From Bryum argenteum (taxonomy: Eukaryota > Streptophyta > Bryopsida > Bryales > Bryaceae): DNA of 64,000 nt. The position numbers and the translations under genes were made by a program. Below the pieces are notes generated by a model that saw only the letters and a list, made by a program, of their open reading frames with translations, was not told where the DNA came from and did not search any database. Of this stretch, positions 27-48,735 are shown one piece after another. Location of the stretch: assembly GCA_037043015.1 (NCBI GenBank), contig CM073321.1, forward strand, positions 26,363,510 through 26,427,509. Reading direction: 5' to 3'. How positions within the stretch are numbered: the stretch's first letter is position 1; the number at the start of each line of letters is the position of its first letter.

Positions 27-943
27 CAACCACTTCCCAAAGAAATTCAAGAGGTGTTGGCCAAGTACAAGGATGTGCTTACCAATGAGTTACCCAAAGA
101 GCTACCCCAAGAAGAGAAGTGGATCACAAGATCGAGGTGCTACACGGAGCCGAGCCACCTTCTAAGGCACCTTATCGGTTAAACCAAAAAGAGTTGATGG
201 AGCTAAAGAAGCAACTAAACGACTTGTTGGAAAGGGGTTATGTGAGACCAAGCAAGTCACCATATGGTGCACCGGTCCTCTTTGTGGACAAGAAGGATGG
301 CAAGCTTAGGATGTGCATTGATTATAGGGCCTTGAATAAGGTGACCATCAAGAACAACTACCCTTTGCCTCGAATTGATGATCTCTTTGATAGATTGGCG
401 GGAGCTAAGTACTTTAGTCGCATAGACTTGAAGTCGGGTTACTACCAAATCCGCATTGCGGATGCGGATGTGGAAAAGACCGCGTGCCGCACAAGGTATG
501 GGTCTTATGAGTTCCTTGTGATGCCCTTTGGGTTGTGCAATGCACCCTCAACATTCACAACCCTTATGAACACCATCTTTCGAGAGGAAATGGATGACTT
601 TGTGATTGTCTACATCGACGACATCTTGGTGTTTTCCAAGACGGCCGAGGAACATGCAAGGCACCTTGAGGCAGTACTCATGAAGCTTAGAGACAACAAG
701 CTTTATGCTAACGGGGAAAAGAGTGAGTTTGCACAACTTGAGATGGAGTTCTTGGGCCATGTGGTTACCGGAGATGGAATCAAGCCGGACATGAAGAAGG
801 TGAAGGCAATTCAAGAGTGGAAGCGGCCTTCTACACAAAAGGGACTTAGGTCATTCCTTGGCCTAGCAAACTACTATCGCCGCTTCATACGCAACTTCTC
901 TAAGATTGCCAAGCCTTTGTCCGACTTGTTGAAAAAGGGGTGA
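27..943 (+). pseudogene. Reverse transcriptase domain of chromovirus pol
   Basis: The longest open stretch runs from 119 to 943 (274 codons). It shows the classical Ty3/gypsy RT blocks: a connection segment ending PYRLNQKE, the F/Y-palm block with [10 protein letters not shown], the YPLPRID motif, [15 protein letters not shown], the [12 protein letters not shown] block, the catalytic YIDD box near 608-622, and the [17 protein letters not shown] end. Upstream codons from about 27 are the usual linker after protease but lie in another frame. The stop at 941-943 follows a run of A and G and is a one-base shift before RNase H. The domain copies RNA into DNA in the native element; here it is only one piece of a broken polyprotein. 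Confidence 0.9.
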
Positions 944-4701: not shown

Positions 4702-5311
4702 ATGGTGGTCATGGGCGGTGGTGAGGAGACACCACCAAGTGCGGTTAGGCCGCGTGGTATGGGAGTGCCACCAAGTTGGGCCTTGGACATAAGTGGAAGT
4801 CCGCACCTAACCATTGGCTACCTACGAAGGGGTTGAGTCCCGGTTGCATGAGTAGGAGGGATTGATAACCAAGCGGTGAGCTTGGTGGTTGGTATGGAGA
4901 GCTAACTTTGTGCATGTGGGGGATGTGCAGAGTTAGCGCTCGTGACACTTGCTAGAGTTGGGAAAAAGTTGGTGTAAGCTAAGGTGAGCTAGCAAGGGTT
5001 GCGACAATGGTGGTCATGGGCGGTGGTGAGGAGACACCACCAAGTGCGGTTAGGCCGCGTGGTATGGGAGTGCCACCAAGTTGGGCCTTGGACATAAGTG
5101 GAAGTCCGCACCTAACCATTGGCTACCTACGAAGGGGTTGAGTCCCGGTTGCATGAGTAGGAGGGATTGATAACCAAGCGGTGAGCTTGGTGGTTGGTAT
5201 GGAGAGCTAACTTTGTGCATGTGGGGGATGTGCAGAGTTAGCGCTCGTGACACTTGCTAGAGTTGGGAAAAAGTTGGTGTAAGCTAAGGTGAGCTAGCAA
5301 GGGTTGCGACA
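4702..5311. repeat. Exact 305-bp tandem duplication of the LTR 3' end
   Basis: Positions 4702-5006 and 5007-5311 are identical by eye over 305 bp, each copy ending GCGACA, the LTR terminus. The duplication therefore adds a second LTR end to the LTR. It accounts for the two identical open frames on the minus strand at 4745-4948 and 5050-5253, which are not genes. Confidence 0.92.
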
Positions 5312-6023
5312 GAGTTGGCGGAAAGATGAAGAGTACATCGCCATTGAATGACGGAGGCAAGAAAGATACGTTGACGGTGCAGATGGTTTTGAAATCAATT
5401 TTTTTGAGGAGAGTCTTGCTACTGGGCATACTAGCGAGGTTGCAGAGAGATGGAAGAATTTTTTTGGGTCTGACAATTTGCGATGAAACTAAAGAAGGAG
5501 GGGTGGCTCTTAGGTAGTTATCCCTAACAAGAGGTGGCAATGGAATATCAGACGTCAGACGACATGGTTGCAGAGGAGACTTCTTCTCGTCTTCTGATGA
5601 ATCCGATATGTCAATGGTGACTTCGAGACCTGGTTCGACCTTGACACGAGTAAGAGCTGGAGCAACCGTGGAGATAGTAGAAGAACTACGTGGGGTTAGG
5701 AGAACTGTTGAGGCGTTCATGACGGACTCTGTCAAGCCGTAGAGGCGATACTTTCCAGCTCGAAGCTTCCAGATTGTAGTATTGTTCTCTAGGATGATTG
5801 GATCTACGACCATGGAGTACTGAACATGATTAGTATCAGGTTCTAGAACTTCTCTCTCTAACCACAGGGAAGATGCATCGTAGCCGAATCGAATTCCAAG
5901 CCACAATGCACTGATGTCTACGACACCTTCAAGCCCTACGGCCATGCAAATGGGAACAAGTGCTCCTTGTGACAGAATCTCAACAATGTCTGCGGCAATG
6001 GGTTCAGTGGACGAGGAAGCCAT
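5312..6023 (-). CDS. Hypothetical protein, 3' end cut off by LTR
   Basis: The frame opens at ATG 6023-6021 and runs 237 codons to 5312, where the chromovirus LTR begins; the remaining codons to 5238 come from the LTR. The product starts MASSSTEPIAADIVEIL and has no domain I recognise. It contains a basic/Val stretch RVKVEPG that fits a SUMO-acceptor pattern (VKVE) and, just after it, VTIDISDSSEDE, a hydrophobic core followed by acidic and Ser residues as in SUMO-interacting motifs. These motifs are short and only suggestive. On the minus strand a TATAAAC box lies about 70 bp upstream (near 6090-6099). The gene is divergent from the one starting at 6537. The true C-terminus would be beyond the left edge of the window. 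Confidence 0.55.
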
Positions 6024-6536
6024 GATGTCCGAGAGGACCAACGAGCATCGGCAGTGGATGTAAGGAAAGGATACACACTACTAGACGATATACCGTTTAT
6101 AAGAGAGAATTTGTACTAAGATCTCGTAATGAAGTGAATAAGGTGGGGAGAGTGATTAAACGGACAATTACCATGAGGAAGAGTGAATATGGTATACCAT
6201 TAGGCAATTGTAATTAGTGTCATTAAAGTGCAAAATCTTGTGATCACGAAATTGGAAAAGTGACGGCGGCGGCATTGTCGAGCATTTGTATGCAAATTCA
6301 AAAATTAGATTAGCATATCATGTCGAGATCGTATCAGGTTAGCGGCACCACCGAGCCGTCATATTTGTTGCGATAATTTATGATAAAGCGCACAATTTAC
6401 GTTAGGGGCGGCTTGTGAACTTTGTTTAAATAGGAGTAGGACGACGAGATGGTCCTTTCTTTCGTTCGTTTAGTTCGAGTTGGTAAGGTATTGAGACGGT
6501 ACGATCGGTGTGCTTCGCTCGTCGAGTCTTGACATT
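6024..6536. promoter_or_regulatory. Divergent intergenic promoter region
   Basis: About 510 bp between two genes transcribed apart. On the minus strand TATAAAC lies near 6090-6099, roughly 70 bp before the 6023 ATG. On the plus strand TTTAAATAGG lies near 6423-6432, about 105 bp before the 6537 ATG. Nothing else is recognised. Start sites are not known. Confidence 0.45.
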
Positions 6537-7249
6537 ATGGACGCGGTGAGCTCGGGTCCGAGAGATCCGGTGATGTGTGCCTAAGAAGAAGAAGAAGAAG
6601 AGGGGTACTCGTTTTAGTAATCTGAAAGCGCGCAAACGAAGTGCATTGCGAAAGGTGGGTGCGTCTAGGTCAAGTGGAGATGAGGGAGGCCCTGCTGATT
6701 TTGATTTGAACGATGATGAACTCGGGCCCCATTATAGGAGGAATCTGAAAATGCGGTCGATCAATCTTGACACAGTGATCGAGATTAACAAGAAAGACAC
6801 TGGTGAAGATGAGAACAAATTCAAGAGATTCATAGATGAGCAAGAGCGCACTAGAAGTGGATCGACATCCAGCGAATCTCTATGTTATTACATAGGAGGT
6901 GATGAGGTTGCACAGGATTCCAAGCGAGTACGCTAGTATTCTTGAGTTTGTGCTATTTAGTTATTGCAGTTTGAGTTTACTGAGTTGAATGTTTGTTTAC
7001 AAGGTTGATGCCGATGAAGGTCCCAAGGTCGATGAGGTAGATGAAATAAGTTTTGACAATTCGGACAAAAACTTGAAGGACAATGATGAGAACGAGGAGC
7101 AAATGGACGAAAAGAAGGCGTTGGTAGATGTTGGAGAGAATGAAGATACCATCGATCGAATTATAGAGGAGGAGGTAAATGATATGACGTTTTTCCTAAG
7201 TGTCATGAAGGAGTCAGGGCACATTTTAGCATTCACCTCGATAGATTAG
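6537..7249 (+). CDS. Basic-then-acidic hypothetical nuclear-type protein, two exons
   Basis: A 5' ATG at 6537 opens a short frame that stops at 6582-6584; the long frame (6577-6927) is offset by one base, so a single inserted base or an unseen upstream exon must be assumed. The long frame begins with PKKKKKKRG, a typical nuclear localisation run, followed by a Ser/Arg-rich part and an acidic part. A 76-bp intron at 6928-7003 (CGA|GTACGC...TTTACAAG|GTTGATG) restores phase to 7004-7249, an Asp/Glu-rich tail ending FTSID. No enzyme domain is visible. The gene is divergent from 5312-6023 and upstream of the methyltransferase-like gene. The exon structure is my inference. Confidence 0.45.
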
Positions 7250-7439
7250 AGACGTGATTATGTTTGCACTAAGAAAATGTGACCTAATATTGAATAAATG
7301 ATTGATTGGTTTTCGTACTTGTAAATCATGTGAGTTTTGAATGCGGTACAAGTGTCAAGTCTCGTGAATAAAAGAGGGCAAATATTCTAACATAAAGGAT
7401 CCAAGGTTATATCCCCAAGCAGGTACGGGTATACGAAGC
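7250..7439. other. Intergenic, no feature seen
   Basis: AT-rich sequence after the acidic ORF, containing possible polyadenylation-like AATAAA near 7291-7297 and 7366-7372. No gene is seen. Confidence 0.4.
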
Positions 7440-7605
7440 GCCGACGGGTATCGGGGTGAGAACCCCCGGCCCGGGCAGCAGCGACGGCGGTTACAGGGTA
7501 AGAACCCCCGGCCCGGGCAGCAGCGCCGGCGGGTACCGGGGTGAGACCCCCGGCCCAGGCCGCATCGCCGGCGGGTACCAGGGCGAGAACCCCTGGCCTG
7601 GAGTG
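7440..7605. repeat. GC-rich 42-bp minisatellite, four copies
   Basis: The word AACCCCCGGC (or a close variant) starts at 7461, 7503, 7545 and 7588, giving a 42-43 bp period. Units carry CGCCGGCGGGTACCGGGG and GGCCCGGGCAGCAGCG. The array is far richer in GC than its surroundings. The open frame on the minus strand (7355-7729) is a by-product of the repeat. Confidence 0.8.
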
Positions 7606-7848
7606 AGAAGCCCCCGCCGCGCCGTTCAGCGGTGAGCGGTGACCGCGTCGTGAGCTTGTCGCTGTCCGTCTCTCTCCGCTCCCTCTCCGGAGGCTTCTTC
7701 CCTGTCAAATCAGCTGCTTTGCGGCGCATTGCTCAATTTGACCAGGTGATGCCGGCACGTTCGTCAAATGATCCTGGGTAATTTCTGAAATGGGAGGTCC
7801 TCCTTTGTGCGCCGCGCAAAACCCTAGAAATTGAATGAGGAGCCGCCG

Positions 7849-8290
7849 ATGAAGCCTCAGATAAGCTTGGCAGTCGACAGTTGTGAAAAGTTGTCAGGAG
7901 AGATGCCTGACAGAAAGAGTGACAATTTGGATTGTAGCTACCAGAATAGAATGGACGCAATTAGTGAAGATGCTTCCGCTGCACTAATACGGCGTACTTG
8001 TTGCTATTAACAACTCCTTTCCTGTCTATGTGCAGTTCGGTTTGAAGGAAGGTGCTACAATGGCAAACTTGGGCGTTGGTGAGGAGATCACAGTGCAGCG
8101 AGAAGAGGAGATCAGAATGCAGCGAGAGGGAGAAGACGTGGAGAAGGGAAGAGACAATGTGAGTACTGATTCCTCGACAAGCCTCTTTTCTGAGTTTTAC
8201 AGGGAATACGCTCTTCAATACGCTCCAGGGAAAGAATTCAAGACTCGTGAAGAAAAGGAGGCGTGGTTTGCGAGGAGCTTCAAGATATGA
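7849..8290 (+). CDS. Two short open stretches, possible exons of a small gene
   Basis: From ATG 7849 a 48-codon frame (MKPQISLAVDSCEKLSGEMP...) runs to a stop at 7996. A short 5-codon uORF at 7835 overlaps it. After a pyrimidine tract ending TGTGCAG at 8036, a second open stretch runs to 8290 with an ATG at 8060 (MANLGVGEEITVQREEE...GKEFKTREEKEAWFARSFKI). The second part is Glu/Arg-rich and likely helical. I could not find splice sites that join the two in phase, because the obvious GT (7994) leaves the wrong phase. No family is recognised. Both lie upstream of the ParB/methyltransferase gene on the same strand. Confidence 0.35.
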
Positions 8291-8579
8291 ATTATCTACT
8301 TCAGCAAGTACTGAATTTGCTACTTCTGAATGCCGAGGAATCTCAGTCTTTTCTCGGGAGAGTACGAGTTCGTTGTTTCTGTCCATGGGACTTCTCTGGA
8401 GAGTGAATATTTTTAGGGGAATTTTGGCCCTTGCAGTGGTCCTAGTGTTGTAGCGGTGTTTTGTTCTCTACGGGGTCGGCAGCCTCCCTCAGACGCTACG
8501 CTGAGAGCCAGGTGATTGGACGCCGACACTCCAATTCCAATTCCTGTGCGTTTCAGTCGATGTGAATTAGGATGAATCC

Positions 8580-10290
8580 CCGGCCCTCAGTGCTCCTCGT
8601 GATGTCGATATGTTGTGGCTCAAAGGGGGTCGGCACCCTCCCAATGCTGTGGTCCTCGTGATGTTCAGATGTTGCTCGGGAGGTTTGATTTGTTTTCTGT
8701 TTCAAATCCTCTTTCATTCTTTCGCTGTGAATGGCGGCTCAATCCCCGAACCTCAGAGGTCCTCGTAATGTTCAGATGTTGTGCCTCGAAGGGGCAGGCC
8801 TCTTCCCGATGCTATGGTCCTCGTGATGGCTGATATTGTGCCTCAAAGGGGCTAGCCTCTTCCCGATGCTGTGGTCCTCGTGATGGCTGATGTTGTGCCT
8901 CGAATGGCCGACACCCTCCGAATGCAGTATGACTGGCACCCTCGTGTGCTTTTGTGTGTCTGTAATCTTGAGTACCTTAAGCTTTTTGAGACACAAATTC
9001 CCGAAGTGGTCCTCGGTGTGTTAGACTTTCGTGGACGAAAGTCTCGCAGGGTCTCAGGAGGTTGGTTTTTTGTTTCTCTTTCAATTCTTCTTTCAATCTT
9101 TTGCTGTGAATGGCGGCTCAATCCCTGAACCTCAAAGGTCCTCGTGATGTTCAGATGTTGTGCCTCGAAGGGGCTGGCCTCTTCCCGATGCTGTGGTCCT
9201 CGTGATGGCTGATGTTGTGCCTCAAAGGGGTTGGCCTCTTCCTGATGCTGTGGTCCTCGTGATGGCTGATGTTGTGCCTCGAATGGCCGACACCCTCCGA
9301 ATGCAGTGTGACTGGCACCCTTGTGGGCTTCTGTGTGTCTATGATCTTGCGTTCCTTAAGCTTTTTGAGACACGAATTCCCGAAGTGGTCCTCGGTGTGT
9401 TAGACTTTCGTGGACGAAAGTCTGGCAGTTGCTCGGGAGGTTTGTTTTTTTTTTCTCTTTCAATTCTTCTTTTAATCTTTCGCTGTGAATGGCGGCTCAA
9501 TCCCGGAACCTTAGAGGTCCTCGTGATGTTCAGATGTTGTGCCACGAAGGGGGTTGGTACCTCCCGATGTTGTGGTCCTCTTGATGGCTGATGTTGTGCC
9601 TCGAAGGAGCTGGCCTCTTCCCGATGCAGTGGTCCTCGTGATGGCTGATGTTGTGCCTCGAAGGGGCTGGCGTCTTCCTGATGCTGTGGTCCTCGTGATG
9701 GCTGATGTTGTGCCTCGAATGGCCGACACCCTCCGAATGCAGTGTGACTGGCGCCCTCGTGGGCTTCTGTGTGTCTGTGATCTTGCGTACCTTAAGCTTT
9801 TTGAGACACGAATTCCCGAAGTGGTCCTCGGTGTGTTAGACTTTCGTGGACGAAAGTCTGGCAGGGTCTCGGGAGGTTTGATTATTTTTTCTCTTTCAAT
9901 TCCTCTTTCATTCTTTCGCTTTGAATAGCGGCTCAATCCGCGAACCTCAGTGGTCCTCGTGATGTTCAGATGGTGTGCCACGAAGGGGGTTGGTACCTCC
10001 CAATGCTGTGGTCCTCGTGATGGCTAATGTTGTGCCTCGAAGGGGCTGGCCTCTTCCCGATGCTGTGGTCCTCGTGATGTCAGATGTTGTGCCTCGAAGG
10101 GGCCGGCACCCTCCCAATATAGTGGACCTCGGATGGCAGATGTTGTGCCTCGAAGGGCCGACACCCTCCGAATGCAGTTGGACTGCCGTCCTTGTGGGCT
10201 ACTGTGTGTCTGGGATCTCGCGTACTTGACGCTTTTTGTTAGACTTTCGTGGACGAAAGTCTGGGAGGGTCTCGGCACCCTCTGTGTGTG
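8580..10290. repeat. 57-bp minisatellite with ~380-435 bp higher-order units
   Basis: The basic unit is about 57 bp (GGTCCTCGTGATGGCTGATG, then TTGTGCCTCGAAGGGGCTGG, then CCTCTTCCCGATGCTGT). Longer units each end with a diverged 57-mer carrying GGCCGACACCCTCCGAATG, then a non-repeated block with a palindrome and CTTTCAATTCTTC. These long units start at 8902, 9281, 9717 and about 10152; spacings of 379, 436 and 435 bp differ by one 57-bp unit. The many open frames on both strands are repeat artefacts. The array sits between short exons and could be intronic. Confidence 0.88.
9023..9044. repeat. Perfect 22-bp palindromic hairpin (first of four)
   Basis: Arms AGACTTTCGT and ACGAAAGTCT are exact reverse complements around GG. 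The same hairpin recurs at 9402-9423, 9838-9859 and 10241-10262, once per higher-order unit. The flanks vary between units but the palindrome does not. Confidence 0.85.
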
Positions 10291-10511
10291 ATGATGTGTT
10301 TTTTAGCAGAACTGGTGTTTTTTGTATTTTCGTGCAAATTTTTGTCAAGCTTTCGGGCATTGAAGTGGTACTTATGATCTTCTCGGTGCTCTAGTTTCAA
10401 ATGGGATTGACATTCTTGTTAAATAATGGAGTTAAATTTTATTTGTTTAGTTTCCTGTTCCTGAACGCTCTCTTAGAGTTGGCTTACTAATGGTTTTGCG
10501 TGGTATTGCAG
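10291..10511. other. Between minisatellite and next exon
   Basis: T-rich sequence ending in TGGTATTGCAG at 10511, a good splice acceptor for the next open stretch. No other feature is seen. Confidence 0.4.
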
Positions 10512-10823
10512 GATCAGTTAAAGCCAGTTGCAGATGATTCAGAAAAGGAATCCGATGCAGATAGCGACCTCTCCTTTTTGAGAGACTAAGTGTTAGCTTA
10601 CGTTGAGTCCCGTCGATTAGTAGTAGCTTTGAGCTCGGTTCCGGGAACTCCGCCTCCTCTCACCCCTGTCAGTCACACTTATCGTGTTGACTTTGATCGG
10701 GTTGCGGTTACAAAGCAAATCAAAAAGAATGATGCCAAAGCTAGACGTATCCAAGAGAAAGCAGTAGCTAGAAGTGTACCACGTCGTTCTCCGCATCTTG
10801 CCGCAAAGTTAAAATTTGTTTAA
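10512..10823 (+). pseudogene. Exon-like frame broken by one in-frame TAA
   Basis: After an acceptor-like TTGCAG, the frame reads DQLKPVADDSEKESDADSD, an acidic run, then meets TAA at 10587-10589. It continues in the same frame for 77 codons with Pro-rich and Lys/Arg-rich sequence (SVPGTPPPLTPVSH, then KQIKKNDAKARRIQEKAVAR, then PRRSPHLAAKLKFV) to TAA at 10821-10823. The composition on both sides of the inner stop is coding-like (acidic, then basic nuclear-type). It may be the last exon of the 7849-8290 unit or an upstream exon of the methyltransferase-like gene; neither can be shown. Confidence 0.4.
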
Positions 10824-10962
10824 TTGTATCCTCATAGTGTATGATATGTTTATCATATGCTTACTTATAAAGCGATTATGATATATTATCTTTCTTATAT
10901 TGTTATTTTGACACATTCTTATTCTTTTTGTCGTCTGCTGTACTTGCTCTCTGAATTGCCAG

Positions 10963-13900
10963 ATGAATCTTGATCAAGTCGAACTTCTTCAAGATGCAGT
11001 GGATACCCGACCTTTTCTTAATCTTCCACAAACGGTATCTCCCGACGGTGACGAACTCTTACTTGATAGTGGCGGATCTGTTGGAGACTTGCGGAATACA
11101 GTACCGGAAGAGACTCCATCGATGATGGATCTCCAAGCTGAAGCAACGCAAGGTCCAGATGGTCACGAGTATCCTTCCGAGGATGATGACACCCCTTTGC
11201 CTGGAGGTGTCACCGTTGGAATCGTCTACATGCCACCTCATCTTGAAAACAAAGATCCGGATTGGAGTGCAAACGAGATGAGAATGATTCACAAAAGTGA
11301 TTCAATTGCGATCATCAACAGGTTGAGATACAAACCTGTGAAAAAGTCCCGCATGCTAATTCCATTGTGTCGTCTTGTTTGTTATCCCAAGGTTCGACCT
11401 ATCTCCGAACAAGACGTACGGAAATTGGAGAATGAGTTCAACAAAGGCTATCGCGAAGGAGACCGAGTCATGTACGTTTTCTCCTTCGATAGGAAAGGGA
11501 GAGAGAAAATTGTTGACGCCGGAGATGCAGTGTGGACGAATCCACTTTGGAAATCTGCAAATGAAGAGTTTGAGAAGACGTTGCTATCTGATCCGGATCT
11601 TCAACACTTGAGCGATAAGTACTTCTACGTGTACGAAGGTAACCACCGAGTTACGGCGTGGATGCGTCACATTGAGAGGTACCATAAGATGGAAGCTTCG
11701 TGGCACATCTCCGTGGACTGTATCGTACTTGATGCACGAGGAGAAAGCAACCTCCTGCTTGACGCTATGAACGACATAAATTGGTGAGTACTTTACTGAT
11801 TTTCCTATTTGCTCTATTTGTATTTTGAGTAACTTCAATGTTTCTTATGTTTGAGTTCGCTCTACAGGTCAACTGAACATGACCATGTCGAAGACGGGTT
11901 GTGTGCAAAATTGCAGCGCATGAGGAAGTTCGGTAAACTGAAACTTGAGGATTTCAAGGATCTGATATCTCCAGAAGATTACAGAATATGCAAGAACGCC
12001 AAAGCCAAAAAAGATTCTTGGTATCCTGTAACAATTGACGTTTTCGTAAAATTCCTATATGCAGTAAGTTGAGTGTAATGGGTTGGTACTGTGATTCGTT
12101 GTATTTGGGTTTTTCCTCTTAATTAATCCTTCTTATGTTATGTACAGAGGAGATTAGCAAAGGCTTCCGATGACGCTGAGACAAATTACTACGCAACAGT
12201 CCCAAAGGAGAAACAAACAGGACCCGGAGTTTGGAGTGCGATGGATAATGCGATCAAAGCAGAAATTAAGGTCATTCGTGGCAAAAACTTCGACAAGATG
12301 GTCGCTGTAGCAAACCATAAACTTGGGAAAGTATTTGCTAAGGAGGTAGAAAATGCAACCCTTTCACGTATCATATGACTATATTTGTGATCATGATTCA
12401 TCACTCGATTCTTACTTGTAAATTACATGTGCAGATTTATTCCCATTACAGCAAGCACCTGAAACCCGATATGACAATAGATCGTTTACAAATGGTTGCC
12501 ACTAGCAATGTTCATTGCGATTTCAAAGGAAAGTGGCTCCAATGGTGGAACTCATCTGACGATGTTCGACGATCTTTTCGCTTCCCTGATGAACGTCCAA
12601 TGAAAGATAAAGCTCTGGTGGCATTTCTGCATCGCGCATCTCTTTGGGCACAGGTATCTTCAATTTTCTTTACGTGTTGAAAAAGTTTGAGTTCATATGA
12701 TATATTCATCATTAACTTGTTTTTTTTTTACAGCTCGAGCATTCACTTCAAACCGAATTGCAAATCCTCATTGACAACGAAAACCTCACCATTGAGTGGT
12801 GTAGTGTTGTCCTAAAGCCATCTGAGTATGTAGAGAAGTGGAGGTTGCTCTTATGGGACAAGGCATTCAACAACTACCTTGGTCCTAATGCAAGCCCAAA
12901 GTTCATCAAAGGCTCGGATCTTCAAAAGATTACCGGGGGCAAAGTTACAATTAAGCGACTTTTATTCCGGTATGTTTTTAATTTTCTCTTCAAAATTATT
13001 AAATTTGGTACAACTTGTTCAATTCACACAATCTGATTTTTTCACACTTTTGTAGGTACTTGAAACAAGAGCTCGTTGCGAAGGGAGCATTAGCTTCGTT
13101 CTCTATTCCAATGGAGTTCGAGGACATTTCAGTCACGAATGATCCCCGCAGCTTTTTCTCCACAGCCCAACAAGAGCGGTTTACCAACTCCCAATTGACA
13201 ACCGGTGGATGGTTTCTGGAGTGTGACGACAACTACGTGCACAAGGAGGAGAAGCATCTTCTTCGAAACCTTGCGTCTAACCCAGCTGACTCTACACCTA
13301 TGGACTTTGACGACGATGACGATGACGACCTCTCCATTTTACCAGTCGCACTTGATCCAATCTCTTCTCCTTCTTCACCAGTTGCAGTGCCCAAGTCTCG
13401 TGCAAACAGGAAGAGACGCAACGCTGTTGCAGAGCCAGTTGTAGATCTTGAGCAAGAATCCGAAGAGAATGCTCCCCTCGGAGAAGACATTGCAGGGCCT
13501 GAAGATGCTGATCTGACTCAGGCTTCAGCGGGAGCCGCAATCAATACAATTCGACGCGGTGCAAGATTGACTCAACTTTCAACAGGTGGACTTACGAATG
13601 CTGGGTCCCCTCCTCAATCATTCACCGTTGACCACAACTCGCAGCAGTCCCCACGTCGCCTTAGCCAGCCAATATTCCCGAGACGCCCTCTTCCAAAACC
13701 CAATCACATCGGTAGCAGCTCGTCGTCTAAAGTATCGGTGACTTTACCTATGTATCTCGAGAAGGGCAACATTGGTGATTTGGTTCACCAGTCATCGAAG
13801 ACTGCAAAATGGGATTCGCAAATCCTCGATATCGTCGAGCACATCAAGAAGGTTTTATTTCTTCCCTTTGTCTTTCATGAACTTCTTCTTACGTTTTGTA

Positions 13901-14905
13901 CTTCTAAATCTATTAGCCACTTTCTAATTTTTTACTTGTATCTCAGATTGGAAAAGACCGCAAGTACCCGTGTTCGGCGATGGAGTATGAACCCAAGCAT
14001 CCAGGGATTGATCTCATTTTTGCAGATGCTCCCGAGAACTTGCCTGTACCGGGTGTGTCTCCAATAGAAATTCCATCTTGGAACCGGCGTGACAAAACCT
14101 ACTTTGAGAGCCTCTTTGTGTTTGCCGCGTATCATTTGACAGACGTTGGAGCCATTTTTCTGATGCATCCCAAATGTCGCAGAATCGAGCGTACTCTCGA
14201 TGCCGAGTCCCATACATATAGTTTTCGTCTTGTTCGAGACTGGTGGGGATATAATCCCCTTCCTATGGCATCTACCGTACCTAAACCGAAAGAGGTACGA
14301 AGCAGATTCTAGTTTTCAATTTCGCAATTCATGGTAATTGCCTTCTTTGCATCTATATTAATGTATCTATACTTGTGTTTTGCAGACTCACTGCTTCCAT
14401 ATCAAAGTGTATGTTCGCAAAGAGTTTGTTTCGAAGTTCCAAACTCGGCAAGTCGCACACGCATATGCGGGTGTGTCAATCGTACCTGATGAGGAAGACC
14501 ACCTCTGTAACTTTGCAGAGAAAGAAACCTTGCGATATCGTCCGGACGGTACGCCGTGGCGAGGCTCACGAGAGAAGGACCCTTTCTTCATTCAATGCTT
14601 CGTCGATTGTCTCACGGACGAGGGGGGTATAGTCTTCGACTGGAGCGCAAGTACAGGTAAAGTTCCCGTAGACTCTACATTAAAATTTGTTTCTACATTT
14701 CGCATTTTTAACGTGGGCTTCCGATTTTGTAGGTGCATCTGTGATTGCTTGCGCGCGCTCCAACCGACACCTCATCGCTATGGAACCTGACGAAGAGATC
14801 TTTGATGGTATACTCGCGGATTACAAGAACGGACCTTCCGGTGATGAGGAAAGTGGAGAATCAGCCCCCCCCCCGCAGACTATGACTCTGACGAACCGGT
14901 CGTGA
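10963..14905 (+). CDS. ParB-like domain plus DNA amino-methyltransferase-like domain, nine exons
   Basis: Nine exons join in phase through GT-AG introns: 10963-11783, 11868-12063, 12148-12345, 12435-12653, 12734-12969, 13056-13851, 13947-14294, 14386-14656, 14733-14905; the product is about 1085 residues. Residues ~130-275 look like a ParB/sulfiredoxin-type domain, with VRPISEQDVRKLE followed by YEGNHRVTAW near 226-235 (the GxHRxxA box). Residues 280-700 are unfamiliar, then there is an acidic, Pro/Ser-rich linker. The C-terminal ~260 residues resemble a beta-class N4/N6 amino-methyltransferase: DLIFADAPEN (849) stands where DPPY is expected, and FDWSASTGAS then RHLIAMEPDEEIF (~1022-1050) stand where the SAM-binding DxFxGSGTT and GxE blocks are expected. 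Both catalytic boxes are altered, so activity is doubtful. A ten-C run at 14865-14874 may shift the frame; with 8 or 11 C the end would read DYDSDEPVVMKPRKFI. Start 10963 could also follow a splice acceptor (CCAG|ATG). Confidence 0.7.
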
Positions 14906-15012
14906 TGAAACCACGAAAGTTCATTGGTGCGTATTACCATCTTGTATTCTCTTTTTCAATTTTGAATTGCACACTTCCAAATCGGTAGGACTGACTTTCT
15001 TTGCAATTTTAG

Positions 15013-15247
15013 GATCGCACGTCTAAAAGAGCGATTGACTCGCAACGCTCATCTCTACAAGAGCCCTCCATCGAAATTCACCCTACCATCGTACGCTGAG
15101 CGACTTGCTCAAGAGTTTGTTCAAGGTCCATCTCCCATTTTGTCTGACACTCCACGTCGACGTTATAGCAAGAGTGTGCTTAAGTTTATAGACTTTGAGG
15201 CAGATCAGTGTGATCAGCACTTTAATGGTACTACACCGTCTACCTAG
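15013..15247 (+). CDS. ORF after the methyltransferase-like gene
   Basis: After an acceptor-like AATTTTAG, an open stretch reads RIARLKERLTRNAHLYKSPP and continues with KFTLPSYAERLAQEF to TAG at 15245-15247. It looks coding but does not join the preceding exon in phase with either reading of the C-run; the phase-correct junction (14926 to 15013) would end after GSHV at 15024. It may be a lost last exon. No domain is recognised. Confidence 0.3.
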
Positions 15248-15471
15248 TGTGTGATTTGTTTTCCGATAGGTACTGGACATGGTAGCGCCATACATTCGTA
15301 GTTTCCCATGATCTATTACTTATATACTATCTATATGTGTTTTTAAATATATACAGTTTAATATTTTTATAAGTCGGAAATTTGTATTCAATAAATTCAA
15401 GCACATTCAAGCCAACTCTCACACCAAGTGTGACTCGTGGCCATACAACTACTATAACTAGCAATCAACTA

Positions 15472-15938
15472 GTCGTAGTTGGAATCACTTCCAGAATCAC
15501 CGCCACTGCGATCACCAGCTTCTGAAGTGAATTCCACGAAATCTTCCCAAATCGTCTGGAGAGGCACTATCTCATACTTGTTGCAGCTGAAGCACCCCCA
15601 ATTCTTGCCCGTCATGTCCTTCAGGTCGTCGTCTCCCTTGTTCCGTGCGATACACCCTGCACACTACGCCTTGTTACAATAATCACACGGGATCACAAAC
15701 TGAATTCCCCCACACCAATTGCATTGCTCATCATCGTACTGGGCGTTCTTCGTGAATACAACGTCGTCCAACACAAGTTTGCACGAAATGCATATGCCAA
15801 CACCGAGACGAGGATGCTCCAACAAACAAGCACGCATTTTTTTCTCCCCACAAGCAGTGCAAGAATACAAATACAAGGGATCAAACCGGCCGAATGCCCC
15901 GCCATTTGATCCACAACAGTGCAAGAGTGAGAAGTTTC
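15472..15938 (-). pseudogene. ADD-type (ATRX/DNMT3-like) zinc domain, one in-frame TAG
   Basis: On the minus strand from about 15924 the frame reads YSCTACGEKKMRACLLEHP, then GVGICISCK, then DDEQCNWCGGIQFVIPCDYC, and after a TAG at 15670-15668 continues CAGCIARNKGDDDLKD and NWGCFSCNKY to a stop at 15474-15472. The Cys pattern (a GATA-like finger followed by a PHD-like finger with CxWC, CxxC, CxxCIxRN and CxxC) is that of the ADD domain of ATRX and DNMT3 proteins, which binds the unmodified histone H3 tail. The stop replaces the residue between Ala and Cys, usually Tyr or Phe. No ATG precedes it: a TGA at 15939-15937 closes the frame. It lies convergent to the methyltransferase-like gene. It is a fragment, not a full gene. 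Confidence 0.7.
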
Positions 15939-17934
15939 AAAAGAGAGATGGCCCACGAACTGCTCTGAGATGCTGGCTTCCGTTTCCTCCGTTCTTGTAT
16001 ATAAGGAGAGAACTTTGGATTTCCCATCCAACCTCACCAACCCGATTTATCAGCACCGGCAGTGCAGTCAGTATCGGCAATCGGCACACCAGCAGCGCCG
16101 TCAGAATCGGCACCGACAAGGCAGCTTTTCTGAACTCTATACCGGCACGGACATTCCAACGAATCAAGAATCGACACAATTCCCTTACACTCTCATGACG
16201 TTGGACGTGAGTTCTCAGGGACACCATCATTGCACTTCGTCCCTCCTGCTAGTTTGTCGGTCCCTCCTGCTAGTTTGTTGGTGCCATGCTAACCACCTGC
16301 TTGATCTTGGTGCCCATAGGGCCGGTTCTTTCCTCTCCCTCGTTCCATGGAAGTTGTCATTGATTCATTTTGTTACCACCGCAGTGCTCGTTTGAAGGTC
16401 CTCGACTCCGATTTTGGTCACTCCCTGCTTGTACATCTAGTCGATGTCATTGTCATCACCTGCGCATGGGACCGGTGCCAGGTGCTGTACTTCGGCTCAT
16501 GGAGCTAATTTCGAAGCTGTACTTTGATCTGTTATTGTAATGGAAGGGCCGTTTTGCTCACCGACCAATGGACGTGAGTTCTTAGAGACACCATCATTGC
16601 AATTTTCATACATTCTCGTGAGTAATCGAATCACTACCGCATCCTTTTCTCCCATCTCTACTAGCACATCATAATGAGCACCGACACTGCACAGCTTCAT
16701 GGAATGTATTCACCCCTAAACCGACACTCCTTATGACACAACCCATCCAATGTCATGAAGTCCAACATCACAATGCATGAGCACCGACATTGAGCATGAG
16801 CAGGAGCACCGGCATTTGAAGGTCAAATTCATCAAATAGTGTGATACTATGGATTTTTGATGATATTACAGAAATTTGTTGATATTATGGAAGATGTGGG
16901 TGATATTAAAAAACGTGCCATTTTGCAAGCATAAATCTTTGAGATTTTGAGTTCAAAAATATGCCGATATAATGGCACGTTTCGTAAACGCGACCAAATT
17001 GGCACAACATGGCTTTGGTAATATGGCAAGAGGAATTGTGTTATTTTAACGGAATTGAGGTTTACTCTAAGTATCTCAGTACAGTGTAATGTAAGCCATG
17101 CATGCCTTTGACGGTGACATCAGCCCTAATTTTGATGTAACTTCTTGAACTCCAATATCAATGCAACGATGTATGTAAATGTTTAAGTACTAAACTCATT
17201 GCACTCTAAAAGTTTTTTTGTTTCCATTGAAGTGATTGAAGCTTGCCAATGTTGGTAGGGGCTATAGTCCAGTAATTGTATAGCTCAGGATAGTCGCTTT
17301 GGGGTCGCGGTGCAACGCTCAAACGAGGCCGAGGAGAATCGAACTCGGACCACTACAATGCCACGTGAATGTCTTTCTGTACACCTTACAACTTACAAGG
17401 TGACACGGGAAGACGACCTGTAGTTATAAATTTTAGATTATATGAACCGAAGCATTTACATATAATTCTGACAGGTGTAGTAGGAAATTGATGACGTCAG
17501 CCCTAATTAGTCTCTAAATCTTAATATTGATAAATGAAACTTATTGATTACCAAAACGGCCATCCCAAATTATGGTATATATTTTGTATATGATTTTAAT
17601 TGTATTGGTTAGACATGATGATGCCAGCCTATAATTTAATTAACTTTTATCTAAACTTGCAAATGTGGATAATTTATGAAATATTGTATAACCTCAGTAC
17701 CATAAAAATAAATGGATAAAGGACCTATATCCACGGTATTGGGTTCTTTTTTTTGCCTAAAAACGACCATTTCAAAAATTCAGAACCAACCATTTCATGG
17801 TAATAGGGCTATTAACTTTTAAATTTTTTTGCAATGAGTGGTAATAGGGTCTTAATCTTTCATGAAAAAAAAAAAAAAAAATCTGCCAATCACCGCTCAC
17901 CGCTCACCGCTCTCCGCTCACACCCGTGCATTCC
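15939..17934. other. Intergenic region; short direct repeat
   Basis: No gene is supported. A ~37-bp block around GGACGTGAGTTCT and GACACCATCATTGCA occurs at about 16202-16238 and again at 16571-16607 in the same orientation. At 17868-17880 there is a poly-A run followed by four CCGCTCA-like words (17892-17922). The rest is AT-rich and unremarkable. Confidence 0.5.
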
Positions 17935-18068
17935 CTGAACGTTGATGGGGCGTTGCACAACCCAAAAGGCATCATCAAAGCCTTTACCACCTCCCAAATA
18001 CACTTGGGAGGTGTGGAGTTAGAAGTGGGCTTATTCCCTTCAAGTCCCAAATCGGTCCTTAGCATCAT

Positions 18069-21063: not shown

Positions 21064-22056
21064 ACACCAACATCCCAACACCCCATCATCCCAATACACC
21101 AACACCCCCACAACCCAACACCCCCACATCCAATCACCTCCACACCAAACACTCCAATAGCCCAACAGCCCAACTCCTCAACACTCTTACACCTCAAGAC
21201 CCGAACATGCCAATATCCCAATACCGCAACCCCGCAACACCCCAACATTGCAACACAACAACAACCTAACATTTCAACACCACAACACTCTAACACTTCA
21301 ATACTCCAACACCTCAACACCTCAAGACGCCAAGACGCCGACAATCCAATACCCCAACACCCGAGCACCCCAACACCGCAACACAGCAAGACCCTAGCAC
21401 CGCAACATGCTCACACTCTAAGACCGCAACTCCCCAACACCCCAATACTCGAACACCCGAACACCGGAACACGCCAACACCGGAACACGCCAACACCCCA
21501 ACTCCCGAACACCTTAACACATCAACACCCTAAGAGCCCAACACCTGAACACCTCAAAATTCCAAGACCCCAAGATCCCACCCAAAGTCCCAAACAAAAG
21601 TATACTCTGACACCGTGACACCCCGGTACTCCAACACCCCAAACCTCCAAAACCCCAAAACCCCAAAACCCCAAACCTCCAAGCCCCCAAACCCCCAACC
21701 CCAAACCCAACCCCAAACCCAAACCCAAACCCGAACCCGAACCCGCACCCGGACCCGGACCCGGACCCGGAACCCAGAATCCGGAACCCGGAACCCGGAA
21801 CCCGGCACCCGGCACCCGGAACCCGCGACCCGCGACCCGCGACCCGCGACCCGTGACCCCGGAACCCGAACCCGAACGAACCGAAACCGAAACCGAAACC
21901 GAAACCGAAACCGAAACCGAAACCGAAACCCAATCCCAAACCCAAACCCAAACCCAAACCCAAACCCAAACCCAAACCCAAACCCAAACCCAAACCCAAA
22001 CCCCAACCCCAACCCCAACCCCAACCCCAACCCAAACCGAACCCAACCCAAGCCAA
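21064..22056. repeat. Degenerate telomere-like array (CAACAC, AACCCx, CCGAAA words)
   Basis: About 1 kb of strand-biased C/A-rich repeats. The left two thirds are CAACACC-type words with drift; from about 21640 the words tighten to six-base units in blocks: AACCCC, AACCCA, AACCCG, CCCGGA, CGACCC, then at 21885-21930 (CCGAAA), at 21935-22000 (CCCAAA), and at 22000-22035 (CCCCAA). Neighbouring blocks differ by one base, as in telomere-variant or slippage-grown arrays. The long open frames here on both strands are low-complexity artefacts. It separates the LTR from the Lunapark promoter. Confidence 0.85.
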
Positions 22057-22563
22057 TAATGCTGCTTTTAATATGCGTCTTGTGTAGTCCCGACTGTAGT
22101 GTTTTCTGCTGAATGCATGATTGTGGCAAAGCTAGAAGCATGATTGTTGCAAAGCTAGACGATCCAGGTGCTGGGCAGGTACTAGCATGTGCCTATGTGC
22201 TTATTTGCCCATTCGCAAGTCCTAAGCATAGGCGGCTGTAGCAGCAGCGTCAAGTGACTGGCACGAAGCGAAGTAGGACGGAATGCCAACACTCGTGCAT
22301 CCACCGACATCGCTTGTCTCGCTCTGGTCTCGTCAAGTCCAACGGATTTGCTGCAGTCACTCTGTTCTGTAGCACTTTACTTCCTTACTGGGTGATTCCT
22401 ACCCCTTCCATCTTCACAGCACTTTTCACGCAAAGCGTCGCAATCGCTGTTCGAAGTCCTAGTCACACCAATCTTTTTCCCTTTCGCTTCAGATGAACTC
22501 CATTTTGGGTGTGACACCGCGATAGGGTTTTGGGATCCAGATTTTGAGGTTTAAGATTTTGCA
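22057..22563 (+). promoter_or_regulatory. Upstream region of the Lunapark gene
   Basis: About 500 bp between the hexamer array and the ATG. A short direct repeat (GCATGATTGT[GT]GCAAAGCTAGA) occurs near 22114 and 22138. Pyrimidine-rich stretches near 22370-22500 look like a 5' leader. No clear TATA box is seen, as is common for housekeeping genes. Confidence 0.35.
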
Positions 22564-37868: not shown

Positions 37869-38065
37869 AAGAGACATTGACTTTCATTTCACTTCCGAAT
37901 TTTGAACACTTTCCAAGGGCTTTGAGCTGCATAATTCATTTTATGTGTACAATGCTTGGTAGGTATTGAGTTCGGAAGTGAGGATTTCCGTAAGGAACTC
38001 TTGCCATTTTTTTCACGTGACGGTCCCACCATTGTTTATAACTTTGAGGCGTCCTATTTATTGTA

Positions 38066-41216: not shown

Positions 41217-43448
41217 TCAAACTGAAGATCCATCTGATTGGCCAATCTGAGCTACACTACGAGTACACGGTCTTTGACTTGGACGGGCAATTCGACCGCC
41301 CTCTTCATACTCTCGATCCACCGCTGCGATTTCGCCTCTTATCTCCGCCTGCCAACTATCCTCCTCATCTTTGCCCGATTGCCTCTTCCGCTTTTTGCTA
41401 GGATCCACTTATTTGTTACGTAAGATTTCCATGGCATTCTCGATCTTTGCAACGACATCTTGTACAACACCTTCGAACTCATTCAATAATAGAAGTTGTG
41501 TGTTTTTTGGGTTTAAAAGACATTCTCTCCAAAATGAAATGGCGTCATCGATACGCACATCAAACTTCTTCACCGCATCCCAATAAGAGACCTCCACATC
41601 TTCAAAAGAATTTTCCGGTATCGAAGTCCGGTATATTGCGGCCTCCTCCAATTTTGCAAGAACCACAGCTCTTCCAATTGGAGTACGATCGTACTTCTTG
41701 TACTCCTCACCAAAGCCGATTGAATCAGTTATTTCGTGCCACGAACCATCTTCTCCCTTTTCCACTTTCTTTGGAGGAAATCGAAAGAAACGGTTGTGTT
41801 CGACGCTCCAATGCCCTCCAAAATTACGACAAAACAACTCTCATTGCTCATCACCTTCAATATTCCTCGCCCTGATCTCTATTTTGTAATCTCGTGTCAT
41901 CCAAAATAACTGATCATGATCCCCACCAAATTGAATGGCTAGTTGGTGTTTTGATTCGGACGAACTCCAGTTAAGTGCATTTCCCCAATCAGAGTAGTTT
42001 AGAAATTTCCTTGGGTATTGATCCAGTGGAAGATTCCATCGGTTGAACTCGTGCCCTGGTGGCATAAGATCTCGTATGCCCATCATCTCGTAGAATCTCG
42101 TCCTAAATGGGGAGCGACATACCGGACATACCGATTTTGTCATCGCATATCGGCATATGCAAGTAACATGGAAGTTATGGCCACATTGGCCCAACGTGTA
42201 TGCTCCCTCTGAACCAAAATTATGTAGGCACACCGCACATTTGTCTTTAAGTATTGCGGGAGGAGGGTCGCATGTGTTGATTACAATGCGAGCTGACTCT
42301 TGTAGGTGCGATGAGAATCTACTATACGGCGCCCATCCTTCCTCTATCTCCATAGTCCAATCAACATCAGTGTTTCGTCCCATCTTAGAGTAGTTTGTAC
42401 GCTCCATCATCTCTTCAATATCCCCCCAAAAAGTGACCTCTACAGGGTCATATCTTTTTTTCGATCTGTTTGTACAGAACTTCTCCAATGAAGCATCTAC
42501 AACTTCACGTGATTCTTTTGATGTATATGCAATCGATTTAAGATCTTCTTTTGCCCTCGAAACCAAGCTCCTCCTATCTTGAAGTCGATAAACCCATTCC
42601 AACCATGGTAGTATGCGTAGGTGGATTGTTGCCTCTGTAGAATCTACCGTTTTGAAGGTTTTCCGTAATGCCTCCAATTCAGCGACTGCCTCATCTCTCT
42701 CTTTACTTGTAGCCTCCAACTTGATTGAGCATGCTTTTGCTTCCTCCTCCAATGTCGCAATTGTAACATCTCTCTCCTTCTTCACTGCCGCGAACTTCAT
42801 CGCCCATGCTCGTTGTCGCTCAATCTGTGCATCATCTATCTCCTTTTGTGATATTAACTTTAATTCCCCCGGAATTTCATCATCGTCATCATCGTCTATT
42901 TCGATAATGGTTTTTCCCTTATCTTCTTTACCATCCTCTTCACCAACCTCTTTAAGAGGAGATAAAATCTTGATATAGGCTTGTCCATTATCTTCTTCAG
43001 CATCCTCTTTACCACCCGCATCAATTTGTGAAAGAAATAGACTATCAGAAGTCCCGATAATGGTCTTCCCCTTATCTTTATTACCATCCTTTTCACCATC
43101 CTCTTTACCATCGTCTTTATCACCCGCATCACATTCTGGAACAACATGACTACATGAAGCCCCCTGAGTGTCATTCTGTGATGGAACAAAGTTGTCATTA
43201 TCTTCTAAGTCTTCTAACGCATCCCTTTCGCGCATTGCTTCTTGGTACTTTGCCACATACTTGCTAGCAGGACTTTGTCGAAACAACCGCAATTCCCTGT
43301 AAAACTTGTCAAGGAGACGTTGCGTAATTTGGTGTTAATGTTGCATTTTGATAATGATCTGATAATCTTTCACTCGGCCGGTCAGTAGAGGATCAAACAG
43401 ATCTACGAGTGCATCAAAATTTATGGCAGCTCGTAGAACGTTGGGCGT
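41217..43448 (-). pseudogene. RING-H2 protein gene, C-terminal half (split by retroelement)
   Basis: This is the 3' part of a gene whose 5' part lies at 49041-50155. When the element 43449-49040 and one GGCGT copy are removed, the frame runs on exactly: ...FAGITP continues with NVLRAAINFDALVDLFDPLL. The half contains an acidic Lys/Asp region, a coiled coil (about 42890-42620), and a RING-H2 finger at 42240-42114 (CAVC ... CGHNFHVTC ... CPVCR), so the native protein was probably an E3 ubiquitin ligase. After it come YWDAVKKFDVRIDDAI and a basic C-terminus PSKKRKRQSGK. In-frame stops lie at 43335-43337 (TAA), 41841-41843 (TGA) and 41409-41411 (TAA), with no frameshift. The last stop is 41217-41219. 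It cannot be made as one protein unless these are read through or are errors. Confidence 0.75.
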
Positions 43449-43720: not shown

Positions 43721-43886
43721 CTCTTGATTTTTTGAAGGGCTTCATCCTCCCTTGTTTTTTCAAACGACAAAAGTAGGACATTGATTAGATTGAGGAACTT
43801 ATCCACCCTCGTGGTAGTGATTGAAAATAGCCACAGAACCGGGACGCATTTGAAGGCTTTGCGAAGCCTGAAGAGTTGATTGAGAG

Positions 43887-48292: not shown

Positions 48293-48735
48293 AGTTGAAG
48301 AACATCAACACGTCCCGGCCAATCAAGAAGCTTGATTGGATTGCTCTTCCTTATCGTGTATTGGAGTGCGTAGGTACACATGCGGTTCGTTTGAATACAC
48401 CGTCAGGTATTCATCCTGTTTTTCATGTGAGTTTAGTGAAGAAGGCAGCTGAGGATCCGTTGCCTTCCCAACTACCTCATGATAATGAGCCCGGTGTTGT
48501 TTTGAGCAATCCCGCTTTCGAGGCATCCACTAGCGAGGACGAGTATGCTGTTGAAAGAGTGTTGCAACATCGACGTCGTGGGCGCGGTTGGCAACTACTT
48601 GTAAAGTGGACAGGATGGCCGGAGCCTACTTGGGAACCTGTTTGCCAATTACAAAATGTCATGGCCTTAGACGATTACGAGCGCTTGTTGCGCGCGTCTG
48701 GTACTGATATTCCTTGGGCACATTCTCTTGTATGA
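48293..48735 (+). pseudogene. Integrase tail and chromodomain of the element
   Basis: The GPY-like region (KKLDWIALPYRVLECVGTHA, then HPVFHVSLVKKA) is followed by a chromodomain: DEYAVERVLQHRRRGRGWQL, then LVKWTGWPEPTWEPVCQL, ending LDDYERLLRA. The stop is at 48733-48735, about 45 bp before the 3' LTR. GAGGAGGAGGAGGAGGAGG at about 48758-48777, just upstream of the LTR, can serve as the polypurine tract. Confidence 0.87.

What the first reader, a model, noticed from the sequence alone, without database searches (positions are those of the whole stretch)
10963..14905. ParB-like domain fused to a DNA amino-methyltransferase-like domain in an intron-rich plant gene
ParB-type domains and beta-class N4/N6 methyltransferases are found together mainly in bacteria and phages. 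Here both lie in one open product assembled from nine exons, with every intron GT-AG and in phase. The GNHRVTA box and the C-terminal order (DPPY-like box before the FxGxG-like box) are visible. This suggests an old transfer from a prokaryote or virus that was domesticated, or cargo of a mobile element. It is the most unusual gene in the window.
Basis: partly seen in the sequence, partly recalled or inferred. Interest (0 to 1): 0.9.

Follow-up and report, generated by a model that had tools for sequence, protein, structure and literature searches.

The report
Moss transposon carrying ParB-methyltransferase-like gene
What looked like one odd plant gene is a cargo gene of a large, high-copy DNA transposon of what is probably a moss, and the transposon's introns hold rows of conserved palindromic sites that this ParB-like protein may recognise, possibly helping the element to escape silencing.

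Summary
The gene is real but not a domesticated single gene. The 9-exon ORF at 10963-14905 checks out; relatives carry a 10th exon (to 15247), lost in this copy. The genome holds at least 141 exon-1 copies. It belongs to a 15-16 kb transposon with inverted-repeat ends and 9-bp target duplications. Other element genes: a MULE-like transposase, a small two-exon gene and, in some copies, an ATRX-type ADD-finger gene. The window copy is 5'-truncated and decayed. The ParB-MTase-like protein is under purifying selection (median dN/dS 0.15; ParB part 0.06). Both domains are remote: no PF02195 hit, PF01555 below cut-off, PHROGs support both. MTase motif IV is DAPE in 15 of 15 sequences read, so catalysis is doubtful. 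New: the small gene's intron holds tandem repeats that hardly align between most subfamilies, yet all 11 pieces examined keep a ~20-bp palindrome (GACTTTCGTNNACGAAAGTC and variants, often changed in both arms); 940 near-matches genome-wide against 11 for a control. This resembles the noncoding tandem-repeat targets of Arabidopsis VANC anti-silencing proteins, but with a ParB-like protein and parS-like sites. Binding is inferred, not shown.

The parts
5307..17936 (.). Remnant of the transposon (5'-truncated; right end ...CACCCGTGCATTCCC)
   Evidence: Shared in whole or part with 10 fetched copies; homology breaks at 5307 and at the right end
17891..17936 (.). Right terminal inverted repeat (CACCGCTCACCGCTCACCGCTCTCCGCTCACACCCGTGCATTCCC; last base differs from the other copies)
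   Evidence: Matches right ends of 7 copies; left repeat read in 7 copies
5307..6077 (-). Remnant of the MULE-like transposase gene (5' part only; cut at 5307)
   Evidence: ORF 5238-6077; full gene in the copy at C1:31.9 Mb
8060..8287 (+). Predicted small gene, exon 1 (MANLGVGEE...); splice donor lost in this copy
   Evidence: tblastn in 9 of 11 pieces
8674..10238 (.). Tandem array (379/436-bp units) inside the small gene's predicted intron
   Evidence: TRF; arrays in other copies
9024..9043 (.). Palindrome GACTTTCGTGGACGAAAGTC, site 1
9403..9422 (.). Palindrome, site 2
9839..9858 (.). Palindrome, site 3
10242..10261 (.). Palindrome, site 4
10512..10823 (+). Predicted small gene, exon 2 (DQLKPVADD...KLKFV); one in-frame stop in this copy
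   Evidence: tblastn in 11 of 11 pieces
10963..11783 (+). ParB-MTase-like gene, exon 1 (variable N-terminus, then ParB-like domain about residues 131-274, GNHR at 226)
11868..12063 (+). exon 2
12148..12345 (+). exon 3
12435..12653 (+). exon 4
12734..12969 (+). exon 5
13056..13851 (+). exon 6 (includes an acidic, less conserved linker)
13947..14294 (+). exon 7 (MTase-like domain; motif IV position DAPE, residue 849)
14386..14656 (+). exon 8 (ends in DWSAST, motif I position)
14733..14905 (+). exon 9 as read in this copy (poly-C frameshift, premature stop); in relatives it runs on to about 14926
15021..15247 (+). exon 10 as inferred from relatives (likely acceptor lost here)
15508..15861 (-). 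ADD (ATRX-type) zinc-finger coding stretch, with one in-frame TAG
   Evidence: PDB ATRX E 1.2e-14 for the open relative in the C1:31.9 Mb copy

Best explanation
The gene is cargo of a large MULE-like DNA transposon of a (probable) moss. SHOWN: inverted-repeat element with 9-bp target duplications; a transposase-like gene, a predicted small two-exon gene, the ParB-MTase-like gene and (in some copies) an ADD-finger gene; an intronic tandem array whose sequence turns over between subfamilies while a palindrome is kept; purifying selection on the ParB-MTase-like protein between subfamilies. INFERRED: the ParB-MTase-like protein binds the palindrome as a symmetric dimer, loads onto the element's own array (as ParB does on parS), and so marks or opens the element's chromatin to keep its genes expressed, as VANC proteins do for VANDAL elements in Arabidopsis. 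The methyltransferase-like domain, lacking canonical catalytic and SAM-binding residues, probably serves as a DNA-binding or scaffold module rather than a methylase. The ADD protein would read the histone state.
For: Copies: at least 141 exon-1 places. TIRs and 9-bp TSDs: exact in 4 of 7 copies with both ends read, 8 of 9 bases (offset by one base) in 2 of 7. dN/dS median 0.15 over 33 of 36 pairs of 9 copies; ParB 0.06, MTase 0.12. Palindrome: 41 exact sites vs 0 control; 940 vs 11 at up to 2 mismatches; the two-arm variant GACTTGCGTNNACGCAAGTC 400 vs 0, the one-arm variant 24, 23 of them in one 19-kb stretch. In 11 of 11 pieces sites sit in the small gene's intron or upstream stretch (58 sites there, 3 elsewhere), although those stretches hardly align between most subfamilies. 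Counted by site form, 36 of 60 arrays lie within 10 kb of a listed exon 1, 35 on its 5' side (random about 3% on C1); of 4 unmatched arrays probed (of 14 unmatched GCG arrays), 3 had an unlisted ParB gene next to them. Domains: PHROG ParB 1033 and DNA methyltransferase 3008; ADD vs ATRX 1.2e-14. VANC precedent, arrays in introns included: PMC5735166 passages.
Against: No binding, expression or methylation data. The ParB assignment is weak (no PF02195 hit; the only Pfam matches of that part are TAZ1_RBM, best 0.045), the box reads GNHC in c5 and GNHL in L036, and both AlphaFold models failed (pLDDT 40 and 28). The palindrome could be bound by the transposase or the small basic protein instead. 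The element's parts are not uniform: c4 has no matching TSD, 6 of 11 pieces lack the ADD gene, and c5 and c9 gave no transposase hit. Within the window's own subfamily dN/dS is 0.46-0.80 (3 pairs, dS 0.020-0.026), so recent copies show little constraint. Site variants follow the ParB tree only roughly, and shared descent of linked DNA would give the same pattern. Array units spread by duplication, so site counts are not independent events. The transposase has no Pfam MULE match.
Confidence: 0.5

Rival explanations
1. The protein is an active amino-methyltransferase: the ParB part brings it to the palindromes, where it writes 6mA or 4mC that labels the element as self or open.
For: PHROG DNA methyltransferase matches in 6 of 6 members (E down to 8.2e-06); motif order as in beta-class enzymes; constraint on the domain (median dN/dS 0.12). 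Eukaryotic amino-methylases acting at transposons exist (PMC8885841 passages).
Against: Motif IV is DAPE, not (D/N/S)PP(Y/F/W), in 15 of 15 sequences read, and motif I is DWSA(S/N)TG where it was read, Ceratodon included.
Confidence: 0.12
2. The palindromes are bound by the transposase or the small protein (transposition enhancer or promoter sites), and the ParB-MTase-like protein does something else.
For: Sites lie in the small gene's intron, between the divergent transposase gene and the ParB gene; the small protein ends in a basic tail.
Against: None of the 58+3 sites lies in a terminal repeat, where transposases usually bind (recalled); ParB-family proteins are the classical binders of long palindromes (recalled).
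Confidence: 0.2
3. The palindromes act as RNA hairpins in the intron (splicing or small-RNA precursors), not as protein sites on DNA.
For: Two-arm changes keep pairing; T.G at position 4 is frequent (34 sites in 5 arrays).
Against: T.T mismatches at position 4 occur in 13 arrays (33 sites) and the C-G compensated form occurs once, so that position is not held paired.
Confidence: 0.1
4. A gene transferred from a prokaryote or virus and domesticated by the plant.
For: Domain kinds typical of phages (PHROG matches).
Against: Multicopy, inside TIR elements with TSDs; no viral or prokaryotic relative confirmed.
Confidence: 0.02

Closest known systems
VANDAL elements with VANC anti-silencing proteins (Arabidopsis MULEs)
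   Same: Multi-gene MULE-like element; accessory genes besides the transposase; short motif arrayed in rapidly diverging noncoding tandem repeats, also in introns (PMC5735166, PMC10398659 passages)
   Different: The VANC21 motif is a non-palindromic 9-mer and VANDALs have degenerate TIRs (same passages); VANC is not known to me as ParB- or methyltransferase-like (recalled; no direct comparison made)
ParB-parS partition systems, and phage ParB-methyltransferase proteins (recalled)
   Same: GNHRxxA box, PHROG ParB and methyltransferase matches, palindromic sites repeated next to the gene
   Different: Eukaryotic intron-rich gene on a transposon; over 500 residues between ParB part and MTase motif IV; no ParA noticed; no PF02195 hit
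Bdelloid rotifer N4CMT and Marchantia MpDN4MT1 amino-methyltransferases
   Same: Amino-MTase-type domain in a eukaryote (PMC8885841, PMC8566409 passages)
   Different: Those are host genes reported to write 4mC (SPPY motif in N4CMT); this one is transposon-borne with DAPE
Mutator-like elements in general
   Same: 9-bp TSD, TIRs, SWIM-like CxC...CxH stretch
   Different: No Pfam MULE match; the passages seen of Table 1 in PMC6446971 list accessory PHD, SET, OTU and PMD parts but no ParB, DNA methyltransferase or ADD ('methyltransferase' occurs 0 times in that text)

Membership tests
Mutator-like (MULE) superfamily | 8-11 bp TSD and TIRs (PMC6446971) | tested here: met
   9-bp TSD exact in 4 of 7, 8 of 9 bases with a one-base offset in 2 of 7, none in 1 of 7 copies (c4); left TIR in 7 of 7
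Mutator-like (MULE) superfamily | Recognisable MULE transposase domain | tested here: not met
   Of 21 family members scanned, none matches a eukaryotic MULE model at E up to 1; one weak PF00872 (Transposase, Mutator family) at 0.18
Mutator-like (MULE) superfamily | SWIM zinc finger | tested here: inconclusive
   PF04434 E 0.16, 12 bits vs cut-off 19.6
VANDAL/VANC anti-silencing systems | VANC-type protein | tested here: inconclusive
   Pfam scan of the accessory protein found only PF01555, sub-threshold; no direct comparison with a VANC
VANDAL/VANC anti-silencing systems | Short motif in fast-diverging noncoding tandem repeats | tested here: met
VANDAL/VANC anti-silencing systems | Element-specific loss of silencing marks | not testable with these tools
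   No methylome or expression data
ParB/Srx family (PF02195) | Profile match | tested here: inconclusive
   No PF02195 hit; phrog_1033 ParB-like in 5 of 7 members, best E 0.0034
ParB/Srx family (PF02195) | GxxRxxA-type box (recalled) | tested here: met
   GNHRVTA at residue 226; R replaced in c5 (GNHC) and L036 (GNHL); the Ceratodon models lack this exon
ParB/Srx family (PF02195) | Binds a palindromic centromere site | not testable with these tools
   Palindromes present next to the gene; binding untested
Beta-class N6/N4 amino-methyltransferases | Motif IV (D/N/S)PP(Y/F/W) | tested here: not met
   DAPE at residue 849 and in 15 of 15 sequences read
Beta-class N6/N4 amino-methyltransferases | Profile match and motif order IV before I | tested here: met
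   phrog_3008 E 8.2e-06, 6 of 6 members, over the motif I end only; PF01555 only sub-threshold, best 0.0024
Beta-class N6/N4 amino-methyltransferases | Methylates DNA | not testable with these tools
   needs assay
ADD domain (ATRX type) | Sequence match to ATRX ADD | tested here: met
   PDB 2lbm/3ql9 E 1.2e-14 to 2e-14; Pfam ADD_ATRX 0.00098, below cut-off

The most novel reading that the evidence does not exclude
A ParB-parS-like recognition system working inside a eukaryotic transposon: a ParB-type protein fused to a non-catalytic methyltransferase fold loads on palindrome arrays in the element's own intron, and protein and site change together between subfamilies, keeping each subfamily's chromatin open.
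Probability: 0.4. Interest if true: 0.92.

Novelty: new variant of a known kind. Interest (0 to 1): 0.8.

Why it matters
If true, a bacterial-type site-recognition device (ParB on palindromes) has been recruited by a plant transposon, and the VANC-style strategy (accessory protein plus fast-changing intronic target arrays) arose again with other parts in mosses. It would give a directly testable second anti-silencing system and a candidate eukaryotic ParB with defined sites, and it might bear on why these elements crowd one chromosome (72 of 141 listed exon-1 copies on C1, 24 expected).

Tried and rejected
Domesticated single gene: rejected (copy number, TIR/TSD). Chance ORF: rejected (selection). 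RNA hairpin as main reading: disfavoured (T.T at position 4). Structure route: both AlphaFold jobs unusable (window exon 1 alone, pLDDT 40; three Ceratodon proteins, pLDDT 28), so no fold search was made. PDB profile of the ParB part gave one unrelated hit (E 0.7); of the MTase part, dynein light chain (0.0068, another region) above the DNA methyltransferases (0.52-0.63). NCBIfam gave only a sub-threshold CcrM match (0.087) for one Ceratodon protein and nothing for exon 1. PDB profile of the transposase: no hit. Viral and prokaryotic contig scans: no confirmed relative. PHROG scan of two divergent copies stopped on stop codons; not pursued. Own-genome searches with PF02195 and PF01555 did not complete. 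Literature: answered searches were made; by title and abstract beginning, none of the listed papers describes this element; a claim of 'not in print' would rest on these listings alone.
Full report
WHAT IS THERE. Nine exons (10963-14905) join into a 1085-aa frame with eight GT-AG introns of 76-95 nt. I read the 3' end of nine copies, the window included. A tenth exon (...LKERLTRNAHLYKSPPS..., to 15247) matches the C-terminus of the Ceratodon proteins. Its likely AG acceptor is kept in the 8 other copies and lost in the window. The window lies in an unnamed 258.8-Mb genome; a moss is inferred from the only database relatives, three Ceratodon purpureus hypothetical proteins at 50-53% identity over 65% of the query (the same three).

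IT IS A TRANSPOSON GENE. Exon 1 has at least 141 distinct places in the genome (141 of 1227 first-look candidates were scored, so this is a lower bound), 72 of them on C1 (24 expected by length). I fetched ten copies of my choosing, mostly high-scoring and from several contigs, and compared them with the window. Copies read at both ends carry imperfect terminal inverted repeats (GGACGTAGCTACGGTGTGAGCGGAGAGCGGTGAGCGGTGAGCG... and its counterpart). Nine-base target duplications were exact in three copies. From their right ends I then predicted the left duplication of four more and fetched those left ends: one exact, two with 8 of 9 bases and a one-base offset, one (c4, on contig C4) without match. 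One full copy is 16,414 bp. The window copy is cut at 5307, inside the transposase gene, and its left part is not found in the next 13 kb to the left (5.3 kb of window and 8 kb fetched; only a 74% match on the other strand). Its small gene, ADD stretch and ParB gene also carry lesions.

GENES OF THE ELEMENT. (a) On the minus strand, a transposase-like gene with invariant D residues, a nearly invariant CxxH pair and a SWIM-like CxC...CxH tail. 75 proteins from several sources, without useful names, are relatives. Of 21 scanned, none matches a eukaryotic MULE model in Pfam and one has a weak PF00872 match (0.18), so 'MULE-like' rests on TSD length and general layout. The core was found in 7 of the 11 pieces; the window and c1_2.84 pieces are cut there, and c5 and c9 gave no hit. 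(b) A predicted small two-exon gene (about 178 aa): exon 1 in 9 of 11 pieces, exon 2 in 11 of 11. (c) The ParB-MTase-like gene. (d) An ADD-finger gene close to ATRX (PDB, E 1.2e-14), in 5 of 11 pieces and in many genome places: 150 matched stretches of 282 candidates, including a second, about 40% identical paralogue.

THE PROTEIN. The ParB part has GNHRVTA (GNHC in c5 and GNHL in L036) and matches a phage ParB family weakly (phrog_1033, 5 of 7 members, best 0.0034), with no PF02195 hit. The C-terminal part matches DNA methyltransferases (phrog_3008, 6 of 6 members, best 8.2e-06; PF01555 best 0.0024, below cut-off); the matches cover the motif I end. At the motif IV position 15 of 15 sequences read have DAPE: 3 Ceratodon proteins and the window, nine fetched copies and two further copies lying in the fetched pieces; the tenth fetched copy, c1_19.9, gave no match there. 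Known amino-MTases have DPPY, SPPY, NPPY or DPPW (PMC8885841 passage). Motif I reads DWSASTG, or DWSANTG in P0003. I therefore think the domain is more likely a binding module than an enzyme. Selection: over 33 of 36 pairs of nine copies (two of eleven left out) median dN/dS is 0.15; for the ParB part 0.06 and for the MTase part 0.12. The three dropped pairs, within the window's subfamily, have dS 0.020-0.026 and dN/dS 0.46-0.80, so constraint is seen between subfamilies, not among the youngest copies. Five of the nine copies (the window among them) show no stop in the compared codons, which end before the poly-C tract.

THE PALINDROMES. TRF shows a tandem array just 5' of the gene in the window and most copies, with different unit lengths (379/436, 383, 393, 316, 267, 467, 234 bp...); c7 has no such TRF call but has four spaced sites. 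The array lies in the small gene's predicted intron. Within the window's group of four the introns align. Between other groups coverage is mostly 0-0.2, except c1_19.9 with c2 (0.71) and with the window group (0.6-0.7 of c1_19.9; 0.1-0.55 the other way). Yet 11 of 11 pieces hold the palindrome: 58 sites inside (13 in c4, one each in c9 and c1_19.9), 3 elsewhere, 0-0.05 per shuffle (up to 3 mismatches). For c5 and c9 the 2.5 kb upstream of exon 2 was used because exon 1 was not found. Genome-wide: GACTTTCGTNNACGAAAGTC 41 exact, control 0; up to two mismatches 940, control 11. The form changed in both arms (GACTTGCGTNNACGCAAGTC) occurs 400 times, control 0; the form changed in one arm 24 times, 23 of them in one 19-kb stretch of C6. 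At position 4 symmetry is loose: T.G 34, T.T 33, C-G 1, A-T 16. That argues for DNA half-sites with one degenerate base rather than an RNA stem. I grouped the listed places into 60 arrays by site form (at least two loci appear under two forms; for the GCG form only the first 50 of 400 sites were listed): 36 lie within 10 kb of a listed exon 1, 35 on its 5' side; for the GCG form alone 5 of 19. Of the 14 unmatched GCG arrays I fetched the flanks of four: three have a more distant ParB gene about 1.1 kb away on the expected side, and one shows only the small gene's exon 1. On a tree of 16 ParB exons, 14 with a site in view, site forms cluster roughly by clade: the GCG form in c7, L006 and L008 together and again in the distant L029. 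Co-evolution or plain linkage would both give that.

HOW IT MAY WORK. Arabidopsis VANDAL elements encode VANC, which binds a short motif lying in tandem repeats of noncoding DNA, introns included, that turn over fast, and removes silencing marks (PMC5735166 passages with its abstract; PMC10398659 abstract and passages). The moss element has the same plan with different parts: a ParB-like protein, a long palindrome instead of a 9-mer, clear TIRs, and an ADD reader in some copies. Binding, anti-silencing and any methylation are inferences.

LIMITS.

Noticed in passing
G000:C6:17908855-17927805: A stretch with 23 one-arm-changed palindromes, mostly at roughly 360-bp spacing, next to a listed ParB exon at C6:17905599.
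   Followed up: no
G000:C1 (44.1 Mb): Half of the listed exon-1 copies (72 of 141) sit on C1; it may be a transposon-rich or sex chromosome.
   Followed up: partly
e.g. G000:C5:10212471 and 10214302; C3:59183 and 61156: A second ADD-like ORF, about 40% identical, lies about 2 kb from the first ADD ORF at these places, which have no listed ParB exon nearby; perhaps a related element family with two ADD genes.
   Followed up: no
window 43884-48735: Ty3/gypsy chromovirus-type retrotransposon ORFs: RT, RNase H, integrase, chromodomain.
   Followed up: partly
window 38048-40819: hAT transposase ORF (DUF659 and hAT dimerisation).
   Followed up: partly
window 89-943: Reverse transcriptase ORF of a retroelement to the left of the break at 5307; it may be linked to the truncation.
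   Followed up: no
window 41841-43334 (-) and 58435-59025 (+): RING-finger ORF and a protein-kinase-like fragment below Pfam's cut-off.
   Followed up: no
window 21514-22131: Long low-complexity stretch reading as G/F-, G/L- or P/N-rich repeats in several frames.
   Followed up: no
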